NCBI GenBank assembly: GCA_027459665.1
Contig: DAIDHN010000037.1
Location: forward strand, 1 to 39,563
Source: Chthonomonadaceae bacterium
GTDB taxonomy: Bacteria > Armatimonadota > Chthonomonadetes > Chthonomonadales > Chthonomonadaceae
DNA: 39,563 nt
Direction of reading: 5' to 3'
Shown: in pieces, positions 1,514 to 28,767 of the stretch
Layout: each line of letters opens with the position of its first letter
Position numbering within the stretch: position 1 is the stretch's first letter
Made by a program: the position numbers and the translations under genes
The notes under the pieces: model-generated
Seen by the model: the letters and a program-made list of their open reading frames with translations, nothing else
Database searches by the model: none
Told to the model about the DNA's origin: nothing

Positions 1514-2563
1514 TTGGCTGGTTCTGTTACACTCAAAGACATTGCTGTACGCGTAGGCGTTTCCAGACAGGTAGTTGCTACTGTGCTTACCGGTCGCGGG
1601 TCTGCACGTGCGGGCAGTGTTACGCGTCAGCAGATACTGCAGGCAGCACATGAAATGGGGTACCGGCCGCATGGCCCTGCCCGCTCGCTGGCTACCGGGA
1701 AAACCAGGACCATAGAGATACAGGCCCATTCGCCTGGCGACAGCCTGTACCGAGTTGCACGACACCATTTGCCGGTGTGGGGGGCTGTGGCAGAGGCATG
1801 CCAGCAGAGAGACTACAGGCTGCTGCTGGTATCGCGCCAGAACGACAGCAATGAGGTGCCGCTGCGCAATTTGCTTGAACGCAATGTAGACGGCGTTATT
1901 TTGATGGGGGTTTCTGATCTCGCTGTACTGCATACCGCACGTGAAGCAGGCATACCTGCAGTATGCATAAACCCGGAAATGGCTCGCGAACTGCTGGTGG
2001 AAGCAGGCTTTGATGTGGTGGATTTTGACAATGCCGGAGGAGTGCAGCAGGCGCTGGAAAAACTGGTGGAACTGGGACACCGCAATATCGGGTTTGTGAG
2101 AGGCAGGTCTTCCAATCAGGATTTTGAAGAGAGGTGGCGCGCCTACTGGCGGTTTATGAATCTGAACAGTCTGCCTGTGCGCTCTGAGTTTGTTTGGGAG
2201 GCAGTGCCGAGTTTTACCAGCGGCAGGCAAATAGGAGAACAGATAGCAGTGCTGCACCAGAAGCCTACTGCCCTGCTTGCTGCATCAGACGCACTTGCAC
2301 TGGGCATTCTTCACTCGCTGATGAAGGCGGGCATTGCTGTACCCAAAGAGATCAGCCTCATGGGGTTTGATGATGTGGAAGCGGCTGCCTATGTCTATCC
2401 TGACCTGACTACCGTGAAACTGGACTGGGGAGGGCTGGGGAAACTGGGGGCGCAGAGGCTGTTCGACCTGCTTTCAGATACCGGCATAGAGCAGCCTGCT
2501 GCCCTGTGCCGGTATCCTGTGCATGTTGTGTGGCGGGGGTCTTGCGAACCTCCTGCATACTAG
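1514..2563 (+). CDS. LacI/GalR-family transcriptional regulator (TTG start)
   Basis: This is a 349-residue LacI/GalR-type repressor. The N-terminal helix-turn-helix reads VTLKDIAVRVGVSRQVV, followed by the family's hinge-helix region (PARSLATGKT) and a periplasmic-binding-protein-like effector domain. In that domain RNVDGVILMG, ELGHRNIGFVRG and LMGFDDVEAA correspond to typical LacI segments. I place the start at TTG 1514 because AAAGGGG lies 8 nt upstream and the protein then begins directly at the HTH. The frame extends further upstream to an ATG at 1430, but that adds 28 unconserved-looking residues and overlaps the start of the divergent gene. Family knowledge says it binds a sugar-like ligand and represses nearby genes. 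The divergent secreted protein and the glycosidase are plausible targets. Its stop codon overlaps that of the convergent protease gene. Confidence 0.88.
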   Translation: MAGSVTLKDIAVRVGVSRQVVATVLTGRGSARAGSVTRQQILQAAHEMGYRPHGPARSLATGKTRTIEIQAHSPGDSLYRVARHHLPVWGAVAEACQQRDYRLLLVSRQNDSNEVPLRNLLERNVDGVILMGVSDLAVLHTAREAGIPAVCINPEMARELLVEAGFDVVDFDNAGGVQQALEKLVELGHRNIGFVRGRSSNQDFEERWRAYWRFMNLNSLPVRSEFVWEAVPSFTSGRQIGEQIAVLHQKPTALLAASDALALGILHSLMKAGIAVPKEISLMGFDDVEAAAYVYPDLTTVKLDWGGLGKLGAQRLFDLLSDTGIEQPAALCRYPVHVVWRGSCEPPAY

Positions 2564-5500
2564 TCTTTTCCTGAACCTGGCTTCACTTCTGAAGAATCGC
2601 CGTTCGGGTTGCTGTTGGCAGGCTTGAGTACGGGCGGCCCGGTATCGGGATGCCTGTTTATTTCCTGCATAAGCACTTTTACTGCTTCCAGCAGCTGCGG
2701 GTCTTCATGGTCTGCTGCCTCTTCGGGGGTAATGTGCACGGTAATGTCTGGCTTTACACCCATATTTTCCAGGTTAGTGCCGTTTACTGTGTACCAGCCA
2801 ACTTCGGGCATTCTGAAGTGGGTTCCATTCAGAAGCGTTCCATCTCTTGTGCCGATGACATAGCCCGGAGTTGCAACTCCGACGATTTTACCGAGTTTCA
2901 GGGTGTGAAAAATCTCGGGAAAAATCTCTGCATCGCTATATGAGTGCTGATTGATAAGCAGCACAATGGGATGCGTGAATGCTCGAACCGGCTGCGACTG
3001 CACCAGACCATCGCGCTGGCGTTCATAGGCATAGATTTTCTGTGCAAGTGCCTGTACAACCTGGTTGTGTGTATTGCCGCCGCCGTTGTTGCGTACATCC
3101 AGCACCAGGCCCTCTTTGCGAATCGCTGTAGTGTAGAGCTGCTGCAGAAATTTCTTAAGCGAAGGCTGGTCCATGGCTTCTATCTGAATATAAGCCAGTT
3201 TTCCATCTGAAAGTTTGTTGACTAGTTTTTGCATGCGCTCTATGTGGTTGCGGTAGCGTATGCCTCCCAGTGCGCCTTCGGGCACCGGCCTAATGGTAAC
3301 GGTGTGCGCTCCTGCTGAAACCGGCTGCTTGTTTACTTCCAGCGTGAGCGGCTTGCCCGCCTTGTTTTGCAGCAGTTTATAGAAGTCTTCTGTCAGCACG
3401 ACCGGCTTTTTGTTGATAGAGAGAATGTAGTCGCCGGGGTGCAGCATCGACCTGGGCTTGTCTGCAGGGCCGTGAGGCAGCACATTCAGTACCTTGATGC
3501 CAGGGCCAGGGTAGTTGTAATCGTAGGTTACTCCCAGTGTTGCTACCTGAATACCTGGGCTGCCAAATGAGGGCGAGATTTCAGAGTGAGAGGAGTTTAC
3601 TTCTCCTATCATTTCAGAAAGCACGTTGGCAAACTCGAATGGGGTACCAACACCGTCAAGAAACTTTTCGTATTTATTGTGCAGGGCCAGCCAGTTCACC
3701 CCGTTCATATGCCTGTCGTAAAATGCAGCTCCGAATCTGCGGTACAACTCATTGAATGCCTGCAGATTAATCTGCTTTTCGTTGTAGGTGTAAATGGCGT
3801 TGAAAGAAATCTGCTGCGGCTGCGCAGGGGGGCCAGGGGGAACCGGTAGTGAGCGCGGTATGCCGTCTGGCGACAGATAGAAGAAGCGATGTCCGTCTGG
3901 TGTGAACTCCAAATCTGAGTTGTTGCCTTCGTTTTCGGGGCCGAATATGCGCATGAGGGCGCTGCCGTCTACGTTTACTACCCAGAAACCTCCTGCAGCG
4001 TGAAACACAATGCGCTGTCCATCTGGCGTAATGGCATAGTCATCTACAGGGGCGGGGGTGTCTATGATGGATGCGCGTTTTCTAATTCCGTCAAAATTGA
4101 TGGCAACTGCCTTGCCTGTGTTCTTGCCGCCTTCTTTTAGCAGCGGCAGGCGGTAGAGCTGAGGCGGGCCGTTTTTATCTGAAATGTATATAAGATACTT
4201 GCCATCGCTGGTAAAGGTAGGGCCGAAATTGAAGTTGGGCATGCGGGTAATGTTTACCGGGTTTCCGCCTGCCGCCGGCACTACCCAGACATCGGTGATG
4301 TCGTATCTGTCCTGGCGTGAATACGCGATCCATTTGCTGTCGGGCGACCAGTTGAGCGAATCGATTCCATTTCCGGCCTGCCCCAAAAAGCGTTCGGGGG
4401 TTTTTCCATCTGCGTTTACCACATAGAGGCCAGGTTTTGCCCCCGATTTTACAAAGGCTATTACCTTGCCATCGGGCGACCAGTCTGGCAGATGCTCTTC
4501 AGGCACATCGTTGGTGAGCCGGGTAATGTTTCCGGTTGCAACGTTGATGGTATACAAATCAGACTGGTTGCCCACATCTGAGGTATAGGCAAGCGTTGTG
4601 CCATCGGGCGACCATGCAATTTGGGCATTGTGTGCGATATTGTGAGTAATGCGGGTTGCATCTCCTCCGTTTGAGGGCACTGTCCATATTTGCCCTCTTA
4701 GCACCAGCGCCAGGGTTTTGCCATCTCTCGAAAGCTCACTGTACTCGGCATGGTCGTGCAGAGTAACCTGTTTGTCTACACTCTGCGAATTATCGTCTGA
4801 TGCATAGATAGTGAGTTTTTGCGGCTGTTTGCCGGGTGTAAGCGTATAGATGTACCCATTGTAGAGGTAGCAGATCACATTGGCATCTCTGGCAGCATCG
4901 GGCCAGCGCACTGCATCGCTTGTGTAGTGGGTAAGAGCCACTGGTCTGCCCCCCTGCACCGGAATGCGCCAAAGATTGGGCGTATTCACACTGCCCAGAA
5001 TAGTAGTCACATAGACATACTTGCCGTCTGGCGCGGCCAGAGGGAACAGCTGCTGGGTAACTGTATGCAAAAGAAAGCGCGCATCATTTTTGCCAGGGGT
5101 TTCAACCATTGTCTGGGCTGCCACGCTTCCCCGGTACCATGCCCTGTTCCAGGGTTCGCCTTCCCGTGTGCATACCAGTTGTTTGCCATCTGGCAGATAG
5201 CGCCCAAAGTAAAGGTTTTCAGAGTCATGGGTGAGTTGTTTGAGGCGCAGGTTGAGCAGGTTCAGTGAAAAGAGCGCTTCTCCCCTGGTATCTCTCGAAG
5301 TTGATGCCAGCAGCAGATGTTTGCCATCCGGCGCCCAGTCGTCTACCAGACTGTTGATTACTGTAACCTGTTTAGGTTCTCCTCCTGCAGCAGGAATCAG
5401 AAAAACCTGCACGCCTCCTGCCCGAAGGCTGTTGAACGCGATCCATTTTCCATTGGGCGACCAGTGCGCCTCGTAATCAATATTCTGATTGGCAGTGAGG

Positions 5501-5805
5501 CGTACAGCGCTTCCGCCCGAAGCAGGTACTGTCCAGAGGTTTCCCCTGTAGGTAAAGCAAATTGTTTTGCCATCGGGAGAAAGCGACGGCCAGCTCATGC
5601 CGCGAATTGGGTGCGGCTGCGGCAGATTGAGCAGGCCCGAATTGGGGAGAACGGGAGGCGGCGGCACTGCCTGAGGGGCGGTGGGAGTGGGTTTTTGAAC
5701 CTTGGGCGGCGCCTTTACGTTTGCCTGAGCGGAAGTGATGGAAAATGCTGCAAGTAGAGACAGGATAAACGAACGAGAGATTCCTGTGCTGCAAAAGCCC
5801 TTCAT
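2560..5805 (-). CDS. secreted Tricorn-like protease (PD40 propellers, PDZ, S41 protease core)
   Basis: This is a 1081-residue protein. A signal peptide (cleavage probably after AQA, residue 28) is followed by a proline-rich linker (about 32-55). From about 70 to 640 there are many SPDGK/SPDSK-type blades characteristic of TolB/PD40 beta-propellers. A helical region, a PDZ-like domain (about 767-800, with PGDYILSINKKPV) and a C-terminal S41 core complete it. All four residues of the Tricorn tetrad can be placed: S739 and H740 (VNSSHSE), nucleophile S957 followed by D958 (HSYSDAE), and E1013 (LENMGVKPD). Their spacing is close to that of archaeal Tricorn, a cytosolic peptidase acting downstream of the proteasome. 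The signal peptide here suggests an extracytoplasmic version that degrades peptides. AGGAGG lies just upstream of the start. The C-terminal tail is low-complexity. Confidence 0.9.
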   Translation of the reverse strand: MKGFCSTGISRSFILSLLAAFSITSAQANVKAPPKVQKPTPTAPQAVPPPPVLPNSGLLNLPQPHPIRGMSWPSLSPDGKTICFTYRGNLWTVPASGGSAVRLTANQNIDYEAHWSPNGKWIAFNSLRAGGVQVFLIPAAGGEPKQVTVINSLVDDWAPDGKHLLLASTSRDTRGEALFSLNLLNLRLKQLTHDSENLYFGRYLPDGKQLVCTREGEPWNRAWYRGSVAAQTMVETPGKNDARFLLHTVTQQLFPLAAPDGKYVYVTTILGSVNTPNLWRIPVQGGRPVALTHYTSDAVRWPDAARDANVICYLYNGYIYTLTPGKQPQKLTIYASDDNSQSVDKQVTLHDHAEYSELSRDGKTLALVLRGQIWTVPSNGGDATRITHNIAHNAQIAWSPDGTTLAYTSDVGNQSDLYTINVATGNITRLTNDVPEEHLPDWSPDGKVIAFVKSGAKPGLYVVNADGKTPERFLGQAGNGIDSLNWSPDSKWIAYSRQDRYDITDVWVVPAAGGNPVNITRMPNFNFGPTFTSDGKYLIYISDKNGPPQLYRLPLLKEGGKNTGKAVAINFDGIRKRASIIDTPAPVDDYAITPDGQRIVFHAAGGFWVVNVDGSALMRIFGPENEGNNSDLEFTPDGHRFFYLSPDGIPRSLPVPPGPPAQPQQISFNAIYTYNEKQINLQAFNELYRRFGAAFYDRHMNGVNWLALHNKYEKFLDGVGTPFEFANVLSEMIGEVNSSHSEISPSFGSPGIQVATLGVTYDYNYPGPGIKVLNVLPHGPADKPRSMLHPGDYILSINKKPVVLTEDFYKLLQNKAGKPLTLEVNKQPVSAGAHTVTIRPVPEGALGGIRYRNHIERMQKLVNKLSDGKLAYIQIEAMDQPSLKKFLQQLYTTAIRKEGLVLDVRNNGGGNTHNQVVQALAQKIYAYERQRDGLVQSQPVRAFTHPIVLLINQHSYSDAEIFPEIFHTLKLGKIVGVATPGYVIGTRDGTLLNGTHFRMPEVGWYTVNGTNLENMGVKPDITVHITPEEAADHEDPQLLEAVKVLMQEINRHPDTGPPVLKPANSNPNGDSSEVKPGSGKD

Positions 5806-5899: not shown

Positions 5900-6904
5900 T
5901 TAAAGAGGGACTTTTATTACCATCTGTGCCGAAACCTGTTCCAAAAGCTCCTGAATAAGAGTATCTGTGCTGATTTCTTCTGCCTGGCCTTCAAAATTGA
6001 GCAGAACCCGGTGCCTCAATGCCGGCAGAGCAGCCGCTTTCAAATCATCTATGGCAACATTGAATCTGCCAGCCGCCAGCGCCCTTACTTTTGCGCATGC
6101 AACCAGCGCCTGCGCCCCGCGGGGGCTGGCTCCGTACCGCACAAACTTTTTGATGTTAGAAGTAGCAAGCTCTGAGCTGGGGTGTGTGCCCAGCGCCAGC
6201 CGAATTGCGAAGTCGCGCATATGCGGTGCCAGAGCGGTTTGCCTGCAAAACTGTCTGTACCCCATTATGGTCTCCGCGTCTATGACAGGCTGCGGCATTT
6301 CCTGCCCTGCGCCGGTAGTTCTATCCAAAATGGCCTCCATCTCCTCAAAGCTGGGTGAAGGAACCAGCAGCTTGAGCAGAAACCTGTCGAGCTGTGCTTC
6401 GGGCAGGGGGTATGTGCCTTCCTGCTCGATGGGGTTTTGCGTGGCCAGCACAAAAAAAGGCTGGGGGAGCATGTGAGCAGCGCCGCCTGCTGTAACGCTC
6501 TGTTCCTGCATTGCTTCCAGCATGGCAGACTGCGTTTTGGGGGTGGCGCGGTTGATTTCGTCAGCCAGCACAATAGAGGCGAATACGGCGCCCGGTTGAA
6601 ACCTGAAGGTTCTTTTGCCCTCATCGGTTTCTGAAAGAATAGTGGTGCCTGTGATGTCGGAGGGCATTAGATCGGGTGTGAATTGAATGCGCGAGAAAGA
6701 GAGGCGCACGCATTGCGCCAGTGTGCGAACCAGCAGCGTTTTACCCAGCCCCGGCACCCCTTCGAGCAGCACATGCCCGCCGGCAAACAGGGCGGTGATT
6801 ACTCCTTCCAGTATTTCTTCCTGGCCTACAATGGCTTTTTGCAGCTCGCTTCTGATCCTCTGAAACGTTTTTTGAAACTCTGCAGCCTGTTCTTCCACGT
6901 TCAT
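5900..6904 (-). CDS. MoxR-family AAA+ ATPase
   Basis: This 334-residue AAA+ protein has Walker A GVPGLGKT at residues 49-56, Walker B IVLADEIN, the MoxR-typical MLEAMQEQ segment directly after it, and sensor 1 in FVLATQNP. A C-terminal lid carries SPRGAQAL. MoxR ATPases are chaperone-like factors that assemble or activate envelope or metal-dependent complexes, usually together with a DUF58 and vWA proteins. Here it is the last gene of a minus-strand cluster, 14 nt after a membrane coiled-coil protein and downstream of ABC-2 transporter genes. No DUF58 or BatA-type vWA protein is next to it. An AGGAG site lies 11 nt before the ATG. The assignment is secure; the client is unknown. Confidence 0.93.
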   Translation of the reverse strand: MNVEEQAAEFQKTFQRIRSELQKAIVGQEEILEGVITALFAGGHVLLEGVPGLGKTLLVRTLAQCVRLSFSRIQFTPDLMPSDITGTTILSETDEGKRTFRFQPGAVFASIVLADEINRATPKTQSAMLEAMQEQSVTAGGAAHMLPQPFFVLATQNPIEQEGTYPLPEAQLDRFLLKLLVPSPSFEEMEAILDRTTGAGQEMPQPVIDAETIMGYRQFCRQTALAPHMRDFAIRLALGTHPSSELATSNIKKFVRYGASPRGAQALVACAKVRALAAGRFNVAIDDLKAAALPALRHRVLLNFEGQAEEISTDTLIQELLEQVSAQMVIKVPL

Positions 6905-18836: not shown

Positions 18837-19511
18837 ATGACTTCCTCCTCTGCTCTGGAAGAAGCAGTTGAATTTGCAGAAAATCCTGAACCCCGATGCC
18901 CCTGTGTGCTTTTGCTCGACACCTCCGGCTCTATGAACGGGCCGGCGCTGGATGCACTGAACGAGGGGTTGAAATCGTTCAAAAACGATCTGGTCAAAGA
19001 CCCTCTTGCATCTAGGAGGGTGGAAGTAGCTGTGGTAACATTTGACAACGAAGTGCGTGTGGTGCAGGATTTTGTTACCGTTGACCAGTTTGACCCTCCC
19101 GGCCTCACCGCCGGCGGCATGACGCATATGGGAGCGGCCATTCACAAGGCGCTTGATATGGTAGCCGCCCGCAAGCAGCAGTACCGCTCCAATGGAGTGG
19201 CCTACTACCGTCCCTGGGTGTTTCTGATTACCGACGGCGCACCGCAGGGCGAGCCTGATGATGTGGTGGAACAGGCAGCCCAGCGTGTGAAAAGCGATGA
19301 AGCCGGGCGCAAGGTGGCGTTGTTTGCAGTAGGTGTGGAAAACGCCGACATGAACAGACTTGCTCAGCTTGCAGTGCGTGCGCCAGTGAAATTGAACGGC
19401 CTCAACTTTGTAGAGATGTTTGTGTGGCTTTCGGCCAGCATGCAAAAGGTTTCGCAGTCGCGTGTAGATGAACAGGTAGCGCTGCCTCCCCCAGGCTGGA
19501 GCGCTGTTTGA
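18837..19511 (+). CDS. TerY-like von Willebrand factor A domain protein
   Basis: This 224-residue protein consists almost entirely of one vWA domain. The metal-ion-dependent adhesion site is intact: D28-x-S30-x-S32, T96 (GGMTHMG) and D133 (LITDGAP). ATG 18837 is chosen because AAGGA lies 8 nt upstream; an in-frame TTG at 18819 would overlap that site. It is the first gene of a three-gene set with a PP2C phosphatase (1-nt overlap) and a protein kinase. That is the arrangement known as the TerY-P triad and seen as yegL-yegK-yegI in E. coli. The vWA protein is thought to be a metal-dependent scaffold or substrate in a phospho-signalling pathway. No signal peptide is present, so it is cytosolic. 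Confidence 0.92.
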   Translation: MTSSSALEEAVEFAENPEPRCPCVLLLDTSGSMNGPALDALNEGLKSFKNDLVKDPLASRRVEVAVVTFDNEVRVVQDFVTVDQFDPPGLTAGGMTHMGAAIHKALDMVAARKQQYRSNGVAYYRPWVFLITDGAPQGEPDDVVEQAAQRVKSDEAGRKVALFAVGVENADMNRLAQLAVRAPVKLNGLNFVEMFVWLSASMQKVSQSRVDEQVALPPPGWSAV

Positions 19512-20239
19512 TGACCTGGAAAGTGGTTTCTGCAAAAACTGCCGGAGTCAGCCACCTCAGGTGCGGTGCCGGCTGCCAGGATGCTTTTGCAAGCGCTGTA
19601 CTGGGGGAGTGGCTGTTTGCCGCGGTAAGCGATGGAGCAGGTTCTGCCGCCATGGGGGGTGAGGGAGCGGAGACTGCTGTTGAAGCAGCCCTCGCTTTTC
19701 TGGTGCAGGCAGGGCCTAGGCTGGCAGGCATGGAAGAAAAGATGCGGGGGGCGGCGTGCGCAGCGCAGGATGCCTTGCAGACAAAGGCGGTGCAGCAGGG
19801 TGCGGCGCTGCGGGACCTTGCCTGCACTCTTCTGCTTGCTGCGGCAGGACCGGAAGGAATTGCCTCGCTGCAAATTGGCGACGGCGCAGTAGTGGCTGCC
19901 GGCAGAGACGGCAGTCCGGTTGCACTCACCCGCCCTCCCGATGCAGAATATGCCAATGAAACAGACTTTCTGGTTTCTGAAGGCGCAATGCAGAAAGCAC
20001 AGATCAAGTTATGGAATGAGATGCCCGGCTATTGCGCTCTGTTTACCGACGGGCTGCAGCGGCTTGCCCTGCAATGGCCTGGATGTGACCCGCATCTTCC
20101 CTTTTTTCAGCCGCTTTTTCGATTTGCAGCCGCCGCAGGCGATAAAAGTGCGGAAGAACTGCAGCGCTTTTTGCAGTCGCCCAAAGTTGCCGGCAGAACC
20201 GACGACGATATAACGCTGATACTTGCCGCTCTGGAATAA
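19511..20239 (+). CDS. PP2C-family serine/threonine phosphatase of the triad
   Basis: This 242-residue PP2C-type phosphatase has metal-binding acidic residues at the expected motifs: D41-G (SDGAGSA), D124-G (IGDGAVV), D180-G (LFTDG) and the terminal DDDITL (D231-D233). The early HLRCGAGCQDAF segment is typical of the triad phosphatases, which are shorter than stand-alone PP2C enzymes. ATG 19511 overlaps the stop of the vWA gene (TGATG). It should remove phosphate from targets of the downstream kinase or from the vWA protein. The kinase gene begins 3 nt after its stop, so the three genes are certainly co-translated. Confidence 0.92.
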   Translation: MTWKVVSAKTAGVSHLRCGAGCQDAFASAVLGEWLFAAVSDGAGSAAMGGEGAETAVEAALAFLVQAGPRLAGMEEKMRGAACAAQDALQTKAVQQGAALRDLACTLLLAAAGPEGIASLQIGDGAVVAAGRDGSPVALTRPPDAEYANETDFLVSEGAMQKAQIKLWNEMPGYCALFTDGLQRLALQWPGCDPHLPFFQPLFRFAAAAGDKSAEELQRFLQSPKVAGRTDDDITLILAALE

Positions 20240-20242
20240 ACC

Positions 20243-22684
20243 ATGCGCCTGGTACGACAATCTGATGGAACCCGAGTCGCTGTAGATGTTTCCGCCTCGC
20301 TGGGCAAAGGCGGCGAAGCACGCGTGTTTCCTGTACTTGATCAAAAGCAGTGGTGCGCCAAGGTGTACCACACTCCAGCCGAAACACAGGCGCGCAAACT
20401 GCAGGCAATGCTGAGCAATCCCCCCGAAGACCCAATGTCAGCGCGAGACCATATCTCCATTGCATGGCCGGTAGACCTTCTGCGCTATATGTACAACGGG
20501 CAGGGACTGGCAGGCTTTTTAATGCCTCGCGTGGAGGCAATGCGGCCGGTTTTCAGCGTATACAACCCAATGACCCGGCGACAAAACACCCCTCTGTTCA
20601 ACTGGCTCTACCTGCACCGGGCGGCACGCAACATGGCCGCTGCCATACGGGCGCTGCATCAGCGCGGATACGTGGTGGGCGACATCAACGAATCGAACAT
20701 CCTGGTGAGCGATACCGCGCTTGTGACCCTGGTTGACTGCGACAGCTTTCAGGTGCGCGACCAGGAACGGGGCAGAGTATACCGCTGTATGGTGGGCAAG
20801 CCCGAATTTACGCCGCCTGAACTGCAAAACAAAAACTTTCGGCTGGTAGACCGCCTGCCAGAACACGATCGTTTCGGCATGGCGGCGCTTATTTTTCTCA
20901 TGCTTATGGAGGGGACGCATCCTTTTGCAGGCATTTATCAGGGCGAAGGCGAACCTCCCCCCCATGAAGAAAGAATCAGCAAGGGGCACTACACCTACAG
21001 CAGCTCTCCTGTGCCTTACCGCCCCATGCCATTTGCGCCTCCTGTAGGCATGCTTCACCCCTCTTTGCGTCAGCTTTTTTCGCGATGTTTCGAGCAGGGC
21101 TGTTTCGACCCGCAGTCGCGCCCTCTGCCCGAAGAGTGGATGGCCGCTTTGCAGCAAGCCGAAGAAAACTTGCTGCCATGCAGTGTGAACCCTTTGCACA
21201 TGTATGGCAGTCATCTGCCAGGCTGCCCCTGGTGCGAGCGAACAGAGCTGCTGGGCGGGCGCGATCCGTTTCCACCTACCACGCAGGAGCCTATGAAGAA
21301 AACCCCGAAAGAGGTGTATCCCGAAAAGCCTGCCGTGCGTTATCAGGGGGCGCGCATTGTGGGCGGGCGAGCTGCCGCCGTGCTGGCCGCCCCGGCCGCT
21401 GCAGTGCAAAACCCAATTGCCGCCATACCTTCTTATGCACCTACTTTTCAGGTCTCTTCTGCCCCAGCGCCTTCTATTACCATTCCCGACTATTCACCAT
21501 TCACCTGGCTTGCAGGCACCTTTGCACTGGTTTCAGCCATACTGCCGGGCTTTCAGATTTTTTTTGGCGTGCTGGCTCTGCTTTGCGGTGTTCCTGCACT
21601 GCGCGATAAACGCAAAGGCCGCTGGCTTGCACTGGCTTCCACTTTACTGGCAGGTGCAGTGGTGCTGACACTGGTGACTCTGCGGCTGCGCGATTACTTT
21701 GTGAAAACCCCTGCAAGAGCCATTATAGAGCAGGGGCCAATCGAGTCTTTGGCATTTGCTCCGGGCGGGCACATCATTGCAGTAGCTACCGGGAGAAACG
21801 AAGACCAGCGTCTCATACCCGGCGAGGTATCTATATACAACACACGCACCGGTGAGCCTGTCAATTTTCTTGATGGCGTGGATGATGAGACCTCTGTGGC
21901 ATACTCTTCTGATGGGAGGCTTTTGGCAGCAGGTACAGGGGGCAGCATGATGCCCGGCATGGTGGAGATATGGAACACCCGGCATTTTGTTGTGATGCAG
22001 AAAATAAGAAACTTTCAGGGAGATGTAACCGGTTTGCAGTTTTCGCCCGACAGCAAAACCATTGCTACAGGCTGCCGCGGCAAAACCATAGCTCTCTGGA
22101 ATGTGGCTACCGGTGAACAGCTCTGGTCGCGCACTGCGCCGGGGCAGGTATTTGATATAGCCTTTTCACCATCCGGCAGGCTGCTGGCAGCTGCTACTGG
22201 CTCTACTTCCAGCGGGCAGCCAGGGCGGGTGAGCGTTTACAGCGCATCGAGCGCCGCACTGCTCTGGTCACATCGTGCGCACAGCGACAGGGCCACCAGT
22301 GTGGCTTTTTCTCCAGACGGCAGGTACCTTGCATCTGCCGGCAACGACAATGCAGTGCGTGTATGGAACCCTGCAACTGGAAAACGCCTCTGGATGCTGA
22401 ATGTAGCTGACGCACAGGCACTGGGCAGCGTAGCATTTTCACCCCACGGCAAACGCCTGGCAGCAGGAGGAAACGACGGCGCGGTGCGTGTATGGGCGGT
22501 GCCTGGGGGTACACTATTGCAGCGTTTTGTAGTGAAAAACCCGGGTAGCAGGTCTGACCTGCTTATACAGCACATTGCATTTGCACAGGATGGGCATTTT
22601 GTTGCGGGCGGTTCTGAGGGGGGGACATTGCATTTGTGGCGTCTGAAAGCAGCCGGGAAACCGCATGAAGGAGCAGGAGGCTGA
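20243..22684 (+). CDS. protein kinase with Zn ribbon fused to TM helices and WD40 propeller
   Basis: This 813-residue protein begins with a eukaryote-like kinase domain: glycine loop GKGGEARVF (residues 21-29), K40, catalytic V-G-D147-x4-N152, and a D165-C-D167 in place of DFG. The last two are usual for TerY-P-type kinases. A Zn-ribbon-like segment follows, with C313, H319/H324 and C328-P-W-C331. After a linker come two to three membrane helices (about 418-480, AGTFALVSAILPGFQIFFGVLALLCG and ALASTLLAGAVVLTLVTL). The rest (about 490-800) is a WD40-like propeller with FSPDGRYLASAGNDNAVRVW and similar blades, placed beyond the membrane or at its face depending on topology. Fusion to a membrane-anchored propeller is not the standard architecture and suggests a sensor kinase for an envelope signal (inference). 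Confidence 0.88.
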   Translation: MRLVRQSDGTRVAVDVSASLGKGGEARVFPVLDQKQWCAKVYHTPAETQARKLQAMLSNPPEDPMSARDHISIAWPVDLLRYMYNGQGLAGFLMPRVEAMRPVFSVYNPMTRRQNTPLFNWLYLHRAARNMAAAIRALHQRGYVVGDINESNILVSDTALVTLVDCDSFQVRDQERGRVYRCMVGKPEFTPPELQNKNFRLVDRLPEHDRFGMAALIFLMLMEGTHPFAGIYQGEGEPPPHEERISKGHYTYSSSPVPYRPMPFAPPVGMLHPSLRQLFSRCFEQGCFDPQSRPLPEEWMAALQQAEENLLPCSVNPLHMYGSHLPGCPWCERTELLGGRDPFPPTTQEPMKKTPKEVYPEKPAVRYQGARIVGGRAAAVLAAPAAAVQNPIAAIPSYAPTFQVSSAPAPSITIPDYSPFTWLAGTFALVSAILPGFQIFFGVLALLCGVPALRDKRKGRWLALASTLLAGAVVLTLVTLRLRDYFVKTPARAIIEQGPIESLAFAPGGHIIAVATGRNEDQRLIPGEVSIYNTRTGEPVNFLDGVDDETSVAYSSDGRLLAAGTGGSMMPGMVEIWNTRHFVVMQKIRNFQGDVTGLQFSPDSKTIATGCRGKTIALWNVATGEQLWSRTAPGQVFDIAFSPSGRLLAAATGSTSSGQPGRVSVYSASSAALLWSHRAHSDRATSVAFSPDGRYLASAGNDNAVRVWNPATGKRLWMLNVADAQALGSVAFSPHGKRLAAGGNDGAVRVWAVPGGTLLQRFVVKNPGSRSDLLIQHIAFAQDGHFVAGGSEGGTLHLWRLKAAGKPHEGAGG

Positions 22685-23520
22685 ATAATTATCAACAGAA
22701 ATGCATCCTGGTTACAGGAGCTTCTTCCGGCATTGGGGAAGAGATTGCAGTAGAGTTTGCATCTGCCGGCTGGCGCACTGTTCTGGTTTCTGAAGACGAG
22801 CGCGGGCTGGTGCGAGTGCAGCAGCGCATTCGGGAAGCAAACGGCTGTGCAGAAGTTTTGCAGACCGATCTGAGCCGCCCTGAACAGGTAGATGCGCTGT
22901 TTAGAAAAGCAGAGTGTGCATTTGGAGCCATAGATATTTTGGTAAACAATGCGGGCATAGGCTTGGGGGCAACAGTGCTTGAGACCAGAACGCAAGACCT
23001 TCGGCTGTTGTTTGAAGTGAACTTTTTTGCCCTGCACAGTTTATGCAGGCAGGCCCTTGCCGATATGGGAAAGCGCAGAAGAGGAATTATTGTAAACGTA
23101 ACGTCTGCGGCTGCGCGCAGCGGCTGCCCGCGGGTGAGTGCGTACTCAGCTTCAAAGGGGGCGGTGCATGCCTACACGCAGTCGCTGCGCCTGGAAGCGG
23201 CACCGCTTGGTGTGAGCGTGGTGGAATGCCTGCCGATTTCGGTGCGCACAGGTTTTTTTGAGAATGTGCGCGGCAAGAAGTACCTTCCTTCGGGCGTAGT
23301 GCAGACCCCGCAGAAGGTAGCAAAAACCCTGCTCAGGGCACTGTCACAAAAAAACCCTCCGGCAGAAGTACTGCCATTCAAACCCATTCGAATTGCTTTT
23401 GTACTCGAAGCGCTGATTCCACAACTGTTTTACCTGTTTTCAAGGCGCATGCTGCTGCATGATGAGGACTATACGCTGGTACCTGTTTCTGGCGGGGAAA
23501 CGCATGGAAATGAAGGATGA
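22681..23520 (+). CDS. short-chain dehydrogenase/reductase with apparent CTG start
   Basis: This is a 279-residue SDR. The fold starts KCILVTGASSGIGEE (TGxxxGIG), then DLSRPEQVDALF and NNAGIG, then catalytic S in NVTSAAARSG and YSASK, with a C-terminal extension probably binding a membrane or lipid (LIPQLFYLFSRRM). No ATG, GTG or TTG lies between the in-frame stop at 22666 and the beta-1 strand. The only start that preserves the nucleotide-binding loop is CTG 22681, with AAGGAG 7 nt upstream, overlapping the TGA of the kinase gene by 4 nt. GTG 22810 would delete the cofactor-binding loop. The substrate is unknown, but neighbouring glycosyltransferase and protease genes hint at envelope lipid or sugar metabolism. 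Confidence 0.8.
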   Translation: MNNYQQKCILVTGASSGIGEEIAVEFASAGWRTVLVSEDERGLVRVQQRIREANGCAEVLQTDLSRPEQVDALFRKAECAFGAIDILVNNAGIGLGATVLETRTQDLRLLFEVNFFALHSLCRQALADMGKRRRGIIVNVTSAAARSGCPRVSAYSASKGAVHAYTQSLRLEAAPLGVSVVECLPISVRTGFFENVRGKKYLPSGVVQTPQKVAKTLLRALSQKNPPAEVLPFKPIRIAFVLEALIPQLFYLFSRRMLLHDEDYTLVPVSGGETHGNEG

Positions 23521-24403
23521 GCCTCTTCTCTCAATAGTGATTGTAAGCTACAACACATGCGATATGCTGAAAGCCTGCCTGCAGTCGCTGCCGCGGGCAG
23601 TTTCTCCCTGCTCTTGCGAGGTATGGGTGGTAGACAACCATTCGCAGGATGGAACAGTGGAAATGCTGCGCACCTGTTTTCCTGAGGTGCAGCGCATAGA
23701 GAACCAGGATAACCCGGGGTTTGCAAAAGCGAACAACCAGGCTTTGCGGCTCTGCAGGGGAGAGTACCTGCTGCTGCTCAACCCAGATACCGAGCCAGAA
23801 CCAGGGTCTCTTGCCCTCATGGTAAATTTTCTGCAAAACAATGCCTCGGTGGGGGCGGCTGGCCCCAAGCTGCTCAATACCGACGGCTCGCTGCAGCGCA
23901 ACGGCGCTCGCTTTCCTTCGCCGCTTCGTGAAACGCTGCACTACTGCGGAGTGCTGTCGCTGCTTCCTGCCGGCTGGCAGGCCAGGCTGGCATATGGGAG
24001 GGAAGATTTTGATGCAGAGTGCGAAGTAGATCAGGTATCGGGCGCCTGCCTGATGATTCCTCGCCGCATTATGGAAGAATGCGGTGCACTGGACGAAGAT
24101 TTTTTCATGTTTTTTGAAGAAGTAGAGTGGTGTTTGCGCATACGCCGCGCGGGCAGCAGGGTAATGTATCTGCCTCAGGCCCGCGTGGTGCATCACTGGA
24201 TGGGCAGCGTACGCAAATCGTACCGCGTGATGGAGCGGCAGCTCAACCGCAGCCGCATGCTGTACTATCGCAAAACCGCCGGCCCCCTGCGCAGGGCAGC
24301 GGCCTGGTGCGCTGTGGGGGCTGCCTCTCTGCGTGCTGCTGTTATCGGCACAGGGGTGTGGGGCAAACGCATTCTGCGCAGACTAAAAGGGAAAATCTCG
24401 TGA
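23504..24403 (+). CDS. GT2-family glycosyltransferase (rhamnosyltransferase-like)
   Basis: This 299-residue GT-A-fold glycosyltransferase has LLSIVIVSYNT at the N-terminus, VVDNHSQDGTVEML, NPGFAKANNQAL, LLLNPDTEP (the metal-binding D-x-D/E element) and later SGACLMIPRR with DEDFFMFFEEVEWCLRIRRAG, all typical of WbbL-like rhamnosyl/mannosyl transferases. It uses a nucleotide-sugar donor and acts at the cytoplasmic membrane face in cell-wall or exopolysaccharide synthesis. ATG 23504 (with GGGGA 6 nt upstream) overlaps the SDR by 17 nt; an alternative ATG lies at 23510. Its stop overlaps the GTG of the next gene. A single GT in this place suggests one added sugar rather than a full polysaccharide pathway. 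Confidence 0.9.
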   Translation: MEMKDEPLLSIVIVSYNTCDMLKACLQSLPRAVSPCSCEVWVVDNHSQDGTVEMLRTCFPEVQRIENQDNPGFAKANNQALRLCRGEYLLLLNPDTEPEPGSLALMVNFLQNNASVGAAGPKLLNTDGSLQRNGARFPSPLRETLHYCGVLSLLPAGWQARLAYGREDFDAECEVDQVSGACLMIPRRIMEECGALDEDFFMFFEEVEWCLRIRRAGSRVMYLPQARVVHHWMGSVRKSYRVMERQLNRSRMLYYRKTAGPLRRAAAWCAVGAASLRAAVIGTGVWGKRILRRLKGKIS

Positions 24404-26007
24404 AAATAACCGCTCCTGTCTGTTTGACACTGGCGCTCTGTGCAACGCTTTCGTACCCTGTACATGCTGCGGCGTTTGATCAGGCTCACGCGCTTTTTGA
24501 GAAAGGGCGTTATGCAAGTGCAGCGAAGGCGCTGCAGCAGGAAACCGTAAAAAACCCTGCCGACACGCAGGCGGGGCTTTTGCTGGTGCGAACTCTTTTG
24601 CGGCTTGACAAGTGGCAGCAGGCGCTGCAAACCGCCCAGGCCCTGGTGAGGCGGCAGGCAGGCAGTGCAGATGCACATGCGCTGCTGGCCATGGCTCTGA
24701 TGCGTGCCGGCAGGCCGAATGCCGCAGAACGGCAGGCCCAGGCGGCTCTTGCCCTGAACCCCCAGTGCTATTACGGGCTGGTGGCAAACGGCAGGATACT
24801 GGCCTGGAACAACCACATAGCGCAAGCCAAGGCAGCGCTGCAGCTTGCAGCGCATCTCTCACCCCGCAACCCCGATGCCTGGTACTACCTGAACGATGTG
24901 CGCAGCAATGAACCTGCCCTTTCTGTACAGGCGCTGGCAGACATACGAACCTACCTTGCGCTCAAGCCCAAAGGGCACCCCAATCTGCTCAACATGCTGG
25001 CACTTCCCGGGCAGATGCCCCTGCTGGAAGCCGAAAGCCGTACCGAACCCATGCAGGCTCTGCAGCCTGTGTCTGAAGCGCAGCTGAACCAGACCGATGC
25101 AGGAGCCGCCCCTGTTTTTTCGCTGACCATGCCAGTGCAGCGAAGCGGCGATTATGTAGTGCTGCCGGTTGAACTCAATGGCGTACGCTGCCGGCTGATG
25201 TTTGATACCGGGGGCGGAGGAGACATCACACTCAATGAAAGCATACTGCGCAAAACCGGGGCAAAAATTCTCTCCCGCTCTATTATATTCGGGGTAAGCG
25301 GCCAGGAGCCAACCAGCCTGGCGTATCTGAGTACCTTGCAGTTAGGCTCGCAAACTTTTGGCCCTGTGCCCATAGAGAGCGTAAAATCCAATCCTGGCAA
25401 CTTCGACGGCATTCTGGGGGCAGCGGCATTTTCGCAGTATGCCGTGACCATAGATTTTTTGAAAAGCACCCTTACCCTGCAGCGGGGAAAGAATGCTGCT
25501 GCGCCGCCGCCTCTTGCAGGCGACAGCATAGTGAGCATTCCTTTTCATCTGCTTGATACCGACATAGTGGTAAAGGCGCAGATGGCAGGGCGAAGCGCCT
25601 GGGCCATTGTTGATACCGGGGCAGATGTGGATGCCATGCTGTCGCTGCGCGCTGCACAGGAAATCGCCCGCACCCTGCCTAAAAAAGCTGCCATGCTAAT
25701 GAAAATGGATGGGCGCATGGGGCTGGGGAAAACAGCGACTAAACAGCAGATGATGATTTTTACACATCCTTACTCTGTTGCCATGCCAGGCGCTGGCGGG
25801 ACAGTTTTTTCCAGCCTGATTCTGCCTTCCATCGGCCTTTCTATTTTAGATACCGAGGTGAACCCCGCAGACGATTTTGAGCTGACCGGGCTGATAGGGG
25901 TGGGTATGATCAGCAAAGCGCGAAGGGTTACGTTTGACTATCCGCACAGGCTTCTTACCATCGAAACAGCCCCTGCCTCTGCCCTAAAAAGCAAGACAGC
26001 GCACTAG
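24400..26007 (+). CDS. secreted TPR protein with tandem retropepsin-like domains (paralogue 1)
   Basis: This is a 535-residue protein from GTG 24400, which overlaps the TGA of the glycosyltransferase gene and has AAGGGA 7 nt upstream. The frame is open further back, but only inside the glycosyltransferase. A signal peptide (VKITAPVCLTLALCATLSYPVHAA) is followed by TPR-like helical repeats (about 25-215). Two aspartyl-protease lobes follow, each with an active-site triad-type loop: D269-T-G (MFDTGGGGDITL) and D405-T-G (IVDTGADVDAML). Each also has a matching C-terminal hydrophobic-glycine segment (DGILGAAAF and TGLIGVGMI). Having both catalytic Asp residues in one chain resembles pepsin-type pseudo-dimers built from retropepsin-like halves. 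It is probably an extracytoplasmic protease or peptide-binding protein. Confidence 0.82.
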   Translation: MKITAPVCLTLALCATLSYPVHAAAFDQAHALFEKGRYASAAKALQQETVKNPADTQAGLLLVRTLLRLDKWQQALQTAQALVRRQAGSADAHALLAMALMRAGRPNAAERQAQAALALNPQCYYGLVANGRILAWNNHIAQAKAALQLAAHLSPRNPDAWYYLNDVRSNEPALSVQALADIRTYLALKPKGHPNLLNMLALPGQMPLLEAESRTEPMQALQPVSEAQLNQTDAGAAPVFSLTMPVQRSGDYVVLPVELNGVRCRLMFDTGGGGDITLNESILRKTGAKILSRSIIFGVSGQEPTSLAYLSTLQLGSQTFGPVPIESVKSNPGNFDGILGAAAFSQYAVTIDFLKSTLTLQRGKNAAAPPPLAGDSIVSIPFHLLDTDIVVKAQMAGRSAWAIVDTGADVDAMLSLRAAQEIARTLPKKAAMLMKMDGRMGLGKTATKQQMMIFTHPYSVAMPGAGGTVFSSLILPSIGLSILDTEVNPADDFELTGLIGVGMISKARRVTFDYPHRLLTIETAPASALKSKTAH

Positions 26008-26022
26008 CGTTTTTATAAACGC
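26007..26022. repeat. short hairpin between the two protease paralogues
   Basis: GCGTTT-TTAT-AAACGC is a perfect 6-bp inverted repeat starting on the last base of the first paralogue's stop codon. The remaining 120 nt before the next gene hold no recognised gene or strong promoter. It may be a weak terminator that allows the second copy to be controlled separately. Confidence 0.3.
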
Positions 26023-26144
26023 GAGGGCAAGGCAGGAAAATGGTATGGTGAGGGAGAATCATTTACTGCCGGTGACAACTGCGGAGCGGCAGGGGAAAAA
26101 CCAGGCAGTGGAATGCAGATTTACTTACCCTCGGAGCTTCATAA

Positions 26145-27734
26145 ATGAATTACCCAGCAATTGTTCGGAGAGTCGCGTTTTTTGCACTGCTTACCTTCAC
26201 GGTGCGCGCTGCCGCTTCGCCGGCGGATACGTTTTTTGAAAAAGGAGAGTTTGCCAAAGCCTCCTCGGCCTGTCTTGCCGAAATACACACCCATCCCCAC
26301 AGTGCAGCGCTGCATTTAGAAGAGGCGCGTATTTTGCTGCGCCTCGATAACTGGCAGCGGGCGGTGGCGCAGGCGCAGTCGGCGGAAAAGCTCAAGCCTG
26401 GCAGCGCAGATGCACACGGCCTGCTCTCGGTGGCGCTGATGCGGGCAGGAGAGCCTGCCGAAGCGGCCGCTGAAGCACGCAAAGCCGCCGCGCTGCAGCC
26501 TTCTGGGTATTACAGCCTGCTGGCACAGGCACGGCTGGACTACTGGAACGACGACAACACTGGTGCGAAAAACCTTCTTGAGAAGGCTGTGCAACTTTAT
26601 CCGGCCAGGCCGGGTGCATACGCCTACCTGCTTCCTCTGTTCAACAGCGTGGATCATAAGGGGGCATATGCCTACCTGTCCGCCTATCTCAAACTGCATC
26701 CCCAGGGCTACCCTCACAAACAGATACTTGAGCAGCTGCATGCAGTGATACAGCACCTCAGTCCGTTTTATGCGAAAAAAGAGGGAAACAAACCTGGTTT
26801 CCCAGATCATTCTATCGGCAGCATCTCTGCCGATTCCAGCGGCGGCGCTGCCCAGGGTATTTCGGCCTGCACGCTGCAGATAGAACAGAGAAACGACTCT
26901 ATACTGCTGCCAGTCACCATACAGGGAAAGCGCTTTTTGCTGCTGCTTGATACCGGTGCAGGCTACGGGGTAGGGCTGGTGAACAGCGCTGCCCAAAGGC
27001 TGAATCTGCCGGTTGAAGGCAGCGCTGTTTTGCAGGGCGTGAGCGGCAGCGAAACCGATAAAACCTACCATGCCAATACCATGCAGGTAGGCAGCGATTT
27101 GTTTCACAAGGTGGAGGTCACCTCTATGTCTTCACTGCCCGATCAGCGCATTGATGGATTGATTGGCGGTGGAAATTTCAGCAATTCCGTGCTTACGCTG
27201 GACTTTGCAAACAGCAGCCTCACCATACAGCAAGGCCCCGGCGCGCAGGCTCCTGCTCCCATGGAAGGCGACCATGTGATGCAGGTGCCGTTTCATTTCT
27301 ATCACGGCTACATTTTCGTTTCCGCCCTGCTTGCCGACAGCAGCAAACCCTCGTGGGAACTGCTGGACACGGGGGCGCAGCCGCTGGGCGTGCTTTCGCT
27401 TGTGACTGCGCATCAACTTGCCAAAAAGCAGCGCAAGGATTCGTGGGCGCAAATTACCATCAATCAGCGGCTGGGTGTGGGGAACACGGCCACTGGCTTT
27501 ACGGCGCTGGTGTTTCGCTTTGCCGTAGACCTCACCATGGCGCACACTACCGGAACACCCTTCCTGATGGAAATGAACCCCATTTTTGGCGCATCCATGA
27601 TGGATACCCAGATTAGCCCCGAATTTGGTTTTCAGCTGAGCGGCATTGTAGGGTTTCCCTATCTTACCAATGCAAAGCGGGTGAGCATAGACTATCCGCA
27701 TCGGTTGCTGACAATGGAGTTTTCAGACAACTAA
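26145..27734 (+). CDS. secreted TPR protein with tandem retropepsin-like domains (paralogue 2)
   Basis: This 529-residue protein has the same plan as its left neighbour: signal peptide (MNYPAIVRRVAFFALLTFTVRAAA), TPR-like repeats (FEKGEFAKASSACL, GLLSVALMRAGEPAEAAAEARKA), then two aspartyl-protease lobes with D269-T-G (LLDTGAGYGVGL) and D408-T-G (LLDTGAQPLGVL). The first Asp falls at exactly the same residue number as in the other copy. Both end with DYPHRLLT followed by a short hydrophobic stretch. The start ATG has CGGAG 7-8 nt upstream. The loops after each DTG differ between copies, suggesting that the duplication is old and that the pockets have diverged. A 10-nt spacer separates it from the epimerase-like gene. 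Confidence 0.84.
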   Translation: MNYPAIVRRVAFFALLTFTVRAAASPADTFFEKGEFAKASSACLAEIHTHPHSAALHLEEARILLRLDNWQRAVAQAQSAEKLKPGSADAHGLLSVALMRAGEPAEAAAEARKAAALQPSGYYSLLAQARLDYWNDDNTGAKNLLEKAVQLYPARPGAYAYLLPLFNSVDHKGAYAYLSAYLKLHPQGYPHKQILEQLHAVIQHLSPFYAKKEGNKPGFPDHSIGSISADSSGGAAQGISACTLQIEQRNDSILLPVTIQGKRFLLLLDTGAGYGVGLVNSAAQRLNLPVEGSAVLQGVSGSETDKTYHANTMQVGSDLFHKVEVTSMSSLPDQRIDGLIGGGNFSNSVLTLDFANSSLTIQQGPGAQAPAPMEGDHVMQVPFHFYHGYIFVSALLADSSKPSWELLDTGAQPLGVLSLVTAHQLAKKQRKDSWAQITINQRLGVGNTATGFTALVFRFAVDLTMAHTTGTPFLMEMNPIFGASMMDTQISPEFGFQLSGIVGFPYLTNAKRVSIDYPHRLLTMEFSDN

Positions 27735-27744
27735 GGAGAAAGAC

Positions 27745-28767
27745 ATGCATGTACTGATTATTGGCGGCACTGGCTTGATAAGTACTTCCATCACCACACA
27801 GCTTCTGCAGCGCGGCGACAGCGTAACGTTGTTCAACCGGGGCAAAAGCGAAGTGCGCGTGCCGCAGGGGGCGCGTATTATTCATGGCGACCGCAGGGAA
27901 TACGCCCGGTTTGAGCAGCAGATGGCAGAAGAAGGCCCATTCGATGCTGTGATTGATATGGTGGGGTTTGTGCCTGACGATGCCGAGAGCCTTGCCCGCG
28001 CGTTTCGCGGGCGCACCAAGCAGGTGATTTTCTGCAGCACTGTCTGCACCTATGGCGGCCCTTCGGTGCAGTTTCCTATCTGCGAAACAGATTTGCAGCG
28101 CCCCATCAGCGGGTATGGGCGCAACAAGGTGCGCTGTGAACAGATTCTGATGGATGCCGCAAGGCAGGGAGCATTCGAAATCACCATCATGCGCCCCTCG
28201 CAAACCTATGGCGAGGGAGGCTCTATTGTACACAGCCTCGGATCGCGCACAACCTACATTGACAGAATTCGCAAGGGCAGGCCCATCATCGTGCATGGCG
28301 ATGGCTCGTGCCTGTGGGCTGCCTGCCACATAGATGATGTGGCCCGCGGATTTGCAGGCGCACTGCTCAACCCAAAGGCGTATGGCAGGGCATACAATGT
28401 TACAGGCGAAGAGTGGATGACCTGGAACCACTACCACGAAGGAGTAGCTGAGGCATTGGGCGCACCCTCACCAAAGCTGGTGCATATCCCTGCCGATCTG
28501 ATGCAGCGCATTGCTCCCAGAACCTTTAACATCAGTATTGAAATCTTTCAGTACCCTTCTATCTTCAGCAACAGCGCCGCCATGCAAGACCTGGGCTTTC
28601 GCTACACCATTCCCTGGGTAGAGGGAGTGCGGCGTACTGTTGCCTGGCTGGACGCCAATGGCAAGGTAGAGAACAGCGACAATGACCCGTTTGACGACAA
28701 GGTGATTGCAGCTTGGGAAAAATACACTGCCTCTATGACAGAAGAGCTGGCCGGGCTGGATGGCTGA
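27745..28767 (+). CDS. NAD-dependent epimerase/dehydratase family protein
   Basis: This 340-residue extended SDR has the N-terminal loop G7-G-T-G10-L-I-S13 (the last Gly replaced by Ser, as often in this subgroup), a STVCTYGG segment and the catalytic pair Y124-x3-K128. It contains MRPSQTYGEGG and a conserved HIDDVARGFAGALL segment late in the fold. It is close to the NAD-dependent epimerase/dehydratase (isoflavone-reductase/CSP41-like) proteins with an NTGxxW-like motif (NVTGEEWMTW). It acts on nucleotide sugars or related small molecules; the exact substrate is not visible. AAGGAG lies 6 nt upstream. Its 3' end overlaps the next gene by 8 nt. Confidence 0.85.
   Translation: MHVLIIGGTGLISTSITTQLLQRGDSVTLFNRGKSEVRVPQGARIIHGDRREYARFEQQMAEEGPFDAVIDMVGFVPDDAESLARAFRGRTKQVIFCSTVCTYGGPSVQFPICETDLQRPISGYGRNKVRCEQILMDAARQGAFEITIMRPSQTYGEGGSIVHSLGSRTTYIDRIRKGRPIIVHGDGSCLWAACHIDDVARGFAGALLNPKAYGRAYNVTGEEWMTWNHYHEGVAEALGAPSPKLVHIPADLMQRIAPRTFNISIEIFQYPSIFSNSAAMQDLGFRYTIPWVEGVRRTVAWLDANGKVENSDNDPFDDKVIAAWEKYTASMTEELAGLDG

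What the first reader, a model, noticed from the sequence alone, without database searches (positions are those of the whole stretch)
18837..22684. TerY-P-type triad whose kinase is fused to a membrane-anchored WD40 propeller
vWA, PP2C and kinase genes overlap or nearly touch (1 nt overlap, 3 nt gap). MIDAS, PP2C and kinase catalytic residues (K40, D147, N152, D165) all look intact. The known triad kinases carry a Zn ribbon; here the ribbon (C313...CPWC) is followed by membrane helices and about 300 residues of WD40-like propeller. That puts the triad at the membrane with a large protein-binding surface, which I have not seen described. No TerB, TerC, TerD or TerZ gene is nearby, so this is a stand-alone phospho-signalling unit.
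Basis: partly seen in the sequence, partly recalled or inferred. Interest (0 to 1): 0.65.

Follow-up and report, generated by a model that had tools for sequence, protein, structure and literature searches.

The report
YegI-type kinase triad with WD40 tail
Three neighbouring bacterial genes make a protein kinase, the phosphatase that probably reverses it and a metal-binding partner, like a trio known from E. coli, except that here the membrane-anchored kinase ends in a WD40 propeller, one of several interchangeable tails that relatives of this kinase carry.

Summary
An intact vWA-PP2C-kinase operon (18837-22684) encodes an 813-residue kinase: catalytic domain, C/H-CPWC motif, 2-3 hydrophobic helices, seven-bladed WD40 propeller. 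The fusion is one open frame in 12 Chthonomonadaceae (Armatimonadota) genomes, so it is not a frameshift. In 17 genomes of the family the three genes are all present (14) or all absent (3), even when unlinked. The closest characterised relative is E. coli YegL-PphC-YegI (53/38/34% identity); YegI also has the CPWC motif and membrane helices, so membrane anchoring is not new. The C-terminal tail is a swappable module: TPR, multi-TM, sulfatase-modifying-factor and HhH/coiled-coil tails occur in relatives. WD40 tails occur elsewhere too: Trichormus variabilis plasmid A (already annotated 'WD-40 repeat-containing serine/threonine protein kinase'), Chrysosporum and Hormoscilla. No TerD in the genome. 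New points: the charge pattern suggests the propeller may lie outside the cytoplasm, a receptor-like form (inferred, not shown), and in three genera the triad heads a conserved run with SDR, glycosyltransferase and aspartyl-protease genes. Verdict: new variant of a known kind, modest interest.

The parts
18837..19511 (+). TerY/YegL-like stand-alone vWA protein (224 aa), MIDAS D28xS30xS32...T96...D133 intact
   Evidence: Pfam VWA 1.8e-14; 53% identical to E. coli YegL; MIDAS conserved in 66 homologues
19511..20239 (+). PphC-like PP2C phosphatase (242-243 aa)
   Evidence: Pfam PP2C_2 1.2e-44; 38% identical to PphC/YegK; metal-site Asp conserved. Start ATG 19511 or TTG 19508
20243..21178 (+). YegI-type Ser/Thr kinase domain, residues 1-312
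   Evidence: K40, D147, N152, D165 invariant; 34% identical to YegI over 319 residues
21179..21235 (+). C313-x5-H319...C328-P-W-C331 Zn-binding-like motif
   Evidence: C313, H319 and CPWC invariant in 25 aligned sequences; also present in YegI
21281..21496 (+). disordered Pro/Ala/Ser-rich linker, residues 347-418
   Evidence: pLDDT below 50 for 347-413
21497..21700 (+). membrane segment, residues 419-486: two short helices (possible hairpin) plus one long helix, DUF4190-like, with a positive loop between helices 2 and 3
   Evidence: helices 419-433, 438-454, 460-486; DUF4190 E 0.0014 for the fragment, below cut-off; loop net charge +3.0 on average in 12 sequences
21713..22642 (+). seven-bladed WD40 propeller, residues 491-800
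   Evidence: Pfam WD40 5e-38; Foldseek best natural hit 5yzv, a Thermomonospora WD40 domain, target TM 0.93
22681..24403 (+). downstream genes that follow the triad in three genera: short-chain dehydrogenase (about 22681-23520, start uncertain) and family 2 glycosyltransferase (to 24403)
   Evidence: Pfam adh_short 1.3e-50, Glycos_transf_2 6.7e-23; same order in L042, L043, L044
24427..28767 (+). two TPR-aspartyl protease genes (about 24427-26007, 26145-27734) and an NAD-dependent epimerase (27745-28767), conserved continuation of the run
   Evidence: Pfam Asp_protease_2 1.9e-11 and 1.1e-10, Epimerase 5.9e-29; order kept in relatives

Best explanation
This is a YegI/PphC/YegL-type (TerY-P) reversible phosphorylation module whose membrane-anchored kinase carries a WD40 propeller as its exchangeable input or docking domain. 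Likely mechanism: the kinase autophosphorylates and phosphorylates cytosolic targets, the PP2C removes these phosphates, and the vWA protein, through its metal site, docks a partner or target. The propeller binds a ligand protein and so changes kinase clustering or activity; the anchor most likely places it on the outer side of the membrane, making this a receptor-like version. In the window's lineage the module may regulate an envelope- or glycan-related process encoded by the downstream SDR, glycosyltransferase and aspartyl-protease genes. Shown here: gene content, conservation, co-occurrence, architecture. Known for the E. coli relatives from the literature: kinase autophosphorylation, membrane location, dephosphorylation by PphC. 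Inferred: propeller side, ligand, downstream process.
For: Identity and motif order shared with YegL/PphC/YegI, whose kinase is reported as membrane-bound and autophosphorylating and as dephosphorylated by PphC (PMC13232886, citing Rajagopalan 2018 and 2020). All-or-none presence of the three genes in 17 family genomes, including genomes where they lie on different contigs (G007, G008, G010), argues that the three proteins work together. Catalytic and metal-binding residues conserved. Tail swapping after the CPWC/anchor region in relatives: WD40, TPR, FGE-sulfatase, multi-TM, HhH. Topology: positive loop between helices 2 and 3 (+3.0) against -0.17 before helix 1 and +0.92 after helix 3; in the 39 single-TM TPR relatives K+R is 4.15 on the kinase side and 1.9 on the tail side. 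Conserved downstream run in three genera.
Against: No biochemical data for this organism. Topology is inferred from charge and helix length only, without a trained predictor or experiment; the C-terminal flank is also mildly positive; YegI (two TM) and the Trichormus WD40 form (propeller before a C-terminal TM) would have their tails in the cytoplasm. The downstream run was not seen in the other family members examined, so the envelope link may be local. The Zn site is read from residues, not shown to bind metal.
Confidence: 0.6

Rival explanations
1. Same module, but the propeller is cytosolic: the membrane segment is a two-pass hairpin as in YegI, and the WD40 domain recruits substrates or assembles a complex beside the kinase.
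For: YegI has two TM helices and a C-terminal part that by this topology is cytosolic. In Trichormus WP_011316427.1 the WD40 domain precedes a C-terminal TM and so lies on the kinase side; the Chrysosporum WD40 kinase shows no TM in the stretch read. Hydropathy alone gives two clusters in the window protein.
Against: A two-pass reading puts the conserved positive loop (RDKRKGR in the window) outside, against the positive-inside rule, in 12 sequences. The model splits the first stretch into two short helices.
Confidence: 0.33
2. An antiphage (TerY-P type) defence module in which the propeller senses a phage product.
For: TerY-P triads with an OB-fold kinase are reported as defence systems (Gao et al. 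2020 as cited in PMC11090510 and PMC7699616). Relatives occur on plasmids.
Against: PADLOC gave only weak kinase and repeat hits. No defence or mobility gene among the neighbours scanned. The triad is kept in 14 of 17 genomes of its family.
Confidence: 0.07

Closest known systems
E. coli YegL-PphC-YegI
   Same: Same three proteins, same gene order vWA-PP2C-kinase, same CPWC motif after the kinase, membrane helices after it
   Different: YegI ends in a coiled-coil/HhH part instead of WD40; in K-12 yegJ is inserted between pphC and yegI; the E. coli anchor looks like a simple two-helix hairpin
TerY-P triad (Anantharaman et al. 2012; Kaur et al. 2020; CoCoNuT-associated triads)
   Same: vWA with MIDAS, PP2C, kinase fused to a Zn-ribbon-like motif; TM-fused forms already described (PMC7159879; PMC11090510)
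   Different: No TerD in the genome, no restriction or DNA-processing genes adjacent; tail is WD40
Trichormus variabilis ATCC 29413 plasmid A, WP_011316427.1 with its vWA and PP2C neighbours
   Same: Adjacent vWA-PP2C-kinase with Zn-like motif and a WD40 propeller; already annotated as a WD-40 kinase
   Different: About 40% identical in the kinase; CYWC instead of CPWC; propeller directly follows the kinase and a single TM sits at the C-terminus
PkwA of Thermomonospora curvata and cyanobacterial kinase-WD40 proteins (Zhang 2007 survey, PMC2176072)
   Same: Ser/Thr kinase fused to a WD40 propeller; best natural structural match 5yzv is a Thermomonospora WD40 domain
   Different: To my knowledge ordinary Hanks-type kinases; membership in a vWA-PP2C triad was not tested for them here

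Membership tests
TerY-P triad | stand-alone TerY-like vWA with intact MIDAS | tested here: met
   53% identity to YegL
TerY-P triad | PP2C phosphatase with metal-site aspartates | tested here: met
TerY-P triad | Ser/Thr kinase with catalytic Lys/Asp/Asn/Asp | tested here: met
TerY-P triad | Zn ribbon at the kinase C-terminus | tested here: inconclusive
   C313, H319 and CPWC invariant in 25 aligned sequences; three Cys and a His, metal binding not shown
TerY-P triad | genes adjacent and co-occurring | tested here: met
   adjacent here, all-or-none in 17 family genomes
TerY-P triad | association with Ter (TerD) genes (frequent, not required: E. coli yeg lacks it in the 20 kb shown) | tested here: not met
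   no TerD in the genome; E. coli neighbourhood
YegI-type membrane kinase | kinase-CPWC-TM order | tested here: met
YegI-type membrane kinase | autophosphorylation reversed by the partner PP2C | not testable with these tools
   reported for E. coli only (PMC13232886)
PkwA-type kinase-WD40 protein | seven-bladed WD40 propeller fused to a kinase | tested here: met
PkwA-type kinase-WD40 protein | canonical Hanks kinase motifs (HRD, DFG) | tested here: not met
   sequence reads GYVVGDINESN and LVDCDSFQ; Pfam Pkinase just below cut-off. It resembles this kind but is not a member

The most novel reading that the evidence does not exclude
A receptor form of the TerY-P triad: a YegI-type kinase with an extracytoplasmic WD40 propeller joined through a DUF4190-like anchor, one of a set of exchangeable outside sensors (WD40, TPR, FGE-like) on one conserved cytosolic kinase-phosphatase-vWA switch, coupled in its operon to envelope glycan enzymes.
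Probability: 0.35. Interest if true: 0.5.

Novelty: new variant of a known kind. Interest (0 to 1): 0.3.

Why it matters
The triad's input and targets are unknown even in E. coli, where no inducing condition has been defined. A family in which the same core carries several different, recognisable tails gives natural variants for asking what the tail senses and on which side of the membrane, and strict co-occurrence of unlinked genes supports the idea that the vWA protein is a genuine third partner.

Tried and rejected
Frameshift or gene-fusion artefact: rejected, one open frame in 12 genomes. Single origin of WD40 tails: neither shown nor excluded; constrained trees were not rejected (p-AU 0.30 for Chthonomonadaceae alone, 0.14 with Hormoscilla). 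The more distant Trichormus and Chrysosporum kinases were not in that tree. Defence-island reading: no neighbouring defence genes. PDB sequence search: kinase hits only to eukaryotic kinases at weak E-values, PP2C none, vWA one weak. Anantharaman 2012 and the two Rajagopalan papers are not held, so whether a WD40 tail is listed in the 2012 supplement could not be checked. A wider census of cyanobacteria by phylum was not possible; 35 genomes reached through loci were searched instead.

Full report
Observation. The three genes are as described. The vWA protein starts best at ATG 18837, the PP2C at ATG 19511 (1-nt overlap) or TTG 19508 (4-nt overlap), the kinase at ATG 20243, 3 nt after the PP2C stop. 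Pfam finds VWA (1.8e-14), PP2C_2 (1.2e-44) and WD40 (5e-38). The kinase domain scores just under Pfam's cut-off (30.3 bits), as expected for a divergent type whose HRD and DFG motifs read GYVVGD and VDCDS; K40, D147, N152 and D165 are invariant in an alignment of 25 sequences, and so are C313, H319 and CPWC at 328-331. The MIDAS residues and the PP2C aspartates are at least 97% conserved across 66 and 73 homologues.

Where it comes from. The window is contig 37 of a 3.67-Mb genome. Named close relatives in the same family are Chthonomonadaceae, so the organism is an armatimonad. The same 800-residue kinase-membrane-WD40 protein is one open frame in 11 other genomes of the family at 37-59% identity. 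In 291 genomes of the phylum the kinase core occurs in 41; among the armatimonad loci whose tails I read, WD40 tails were found only in the window's family.

Partners. I searched 17 genomes of the family for the vWA protein and the PP2C and compared with the kinase. Fourteen have all three and three (G003, G009, G012) have none. In G007, G008 and G010 the genes lie on different contigs, so the pattern is not an effect of linkage. Two of the fourteen need a caveat: G014 matched only a kinase of another, 658-aa kind (its vWA and PP2C genes lie at a contig edge), and G005 has only a YegI-like kind. This is the strongest evidence here that the three proteins act together.

What it is. E. coli K-12 YegL, PphC and YegI are 53%, 38% and 34% identical to the three proteins, in the same gene order, and YegI has the same CPWC motif followed by two hydrophobic helices. 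YegI is reported as a membrane-bound kinase that autophosphorylates and is dephosphorylated by PphC, with no known inducing condition (PMC13232886). Kaur et al. 2020 already describe triads whose kinase is fused to a zinc ribbon or to TM helices (PMC7159879). So the triad, the CPWC motif and the membrane anchor are known.

The tail is a module. Reading the C-termini of relatives shows TPR repeats (Nostocales, Gloeocapsa), a multi-helix membrane domain (Microcoleus, Planktothrix, Okeania), an FGE-sulfatase domain (Poribacteria and some armatimonads), HhH/coiled coil (E. coli and other armatimonads), no tail (three armatimonads) and WD40. WD40 tails are not confined to the window's family: Hormoscilla L115 (one TM before the propeller; the copy in L112 is split between two frames), Trichormus variabilis ATCC 29413 plasmid A, and Chrysosporum bergii L156, the latter two inside adjacent vWA-PP2C-kinase triads. 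The Trichormus protein is annotated 'WD-40 repeat-containing serine/threonine protein kinase', so the combination has been in public records, although I found no paper that discusses it as a TerY-P form. A tree of kinase cores leaves the number of WD40 origins open: 5 changes on the best tree, with a single origin not rejected (p-AU 0.30 within the family, 0.14 with Hormoscilla).

Structure and side of the membrane. The AlphaFold model (mean pLDDT 83) gives a kinase domain, a disordered linker 347-413, helices at 419-433, 438-454 and 460-486, and a propeller at 491-800. Foldseek's best natural match is 5yzv, a Thermomonospora WD40 domain. The membrane segment resembles DUF4190 weakly (E 0.0014 for the fragment, under the curated cut-off). 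In 12 sequences the loop between the second and third helix carries +3.0 net charge, against -0.17 before the first helix and +0.92 after the third. With the kinase inside, the simplest reading that keeps this loop inside is a short hairpin followed by one crossing, which puts the propeller outside. Relatives with a single TM (TPR tails) show the expected positive kinase side (K+R 4.15 against 1.9). This is inference: the YegI hairpin and the Trichormus C-terminal anchor would leave their tails inside, so tail location is not uniform in the wider family, and no coordinates or trained topology predictor were available.

Surroundings. In the window and in L042, L043 and L044 (three genera counting the window) the triad is followed on the same strand by a short-chain dehydrogenase, a family 2 glycosyltransferase and TPR-aspartyl protease genes, then an epimerase where the contig reaches that far. 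In the window the SDR reading frame overlaps the kinase stop if it starts at CTG 22681. No Ter gene or defence gene was found among the neighbours scanned and TerD is absent from the genome. This suggests, weakly, an envelope or glycan role in this lineage rather than tellurite or phage resistance.

Verdict. A real, conserved, intact module; a new tail variant of the YegI/TerY-P triad, with a database precedent for the WD40 fusion. The open and testable point is whether the propeller faces outward.

Noticed in passing
window 22681-22810: The SDR gene after the kinase has no ATG/GTG/TTG start ahead of its GASSGIG motif; the frame runs on into the kinase end and could start at CTG 22681, overlapping the kinase stop by 4 nt.
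   Followed up: partly
window 24427-27734: Two adjacent paralogous TPR plus retropepsin-like aspartyl protease genes (Asp_protease_2), also present in L042 and L044.
   Followed up: partly
window 5900-6904 and 2560-5805: A MoxR-type AAA ATPase (also matching Pfam bpMoxR) near ABC-2 transporter genes, and a Tricorn-like protease with PD40 propeller, PDZ and S41 domains.
   Followed up: no
L153:4355-7614: Granulicella tundricola plasmid pACIX901 carries an adjacent vWA-PP2C-kinase triad with a kinase about 47% identical to the window's, annotated only as hypothetical protein, with a multi-helix hydrophobic tail.
   Followed up: partly
L155: In Sphaerospermopsis a paralogous triad kinase has TPR repeats, one TM and then a PDZ-like and TPR region, another tail type.
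   Followed up: no
L038:8187-12235: One armatimonad (G054) has two different YegI-like kinases side by side after a single vWA-PP2C pair.
   Followed up: no
L154:410-6914: In Rhizobium rhizogenes the triad directly follows a His-Xaa-Ser system (hxsB, hxsC, hxsA).
   Followed up: no
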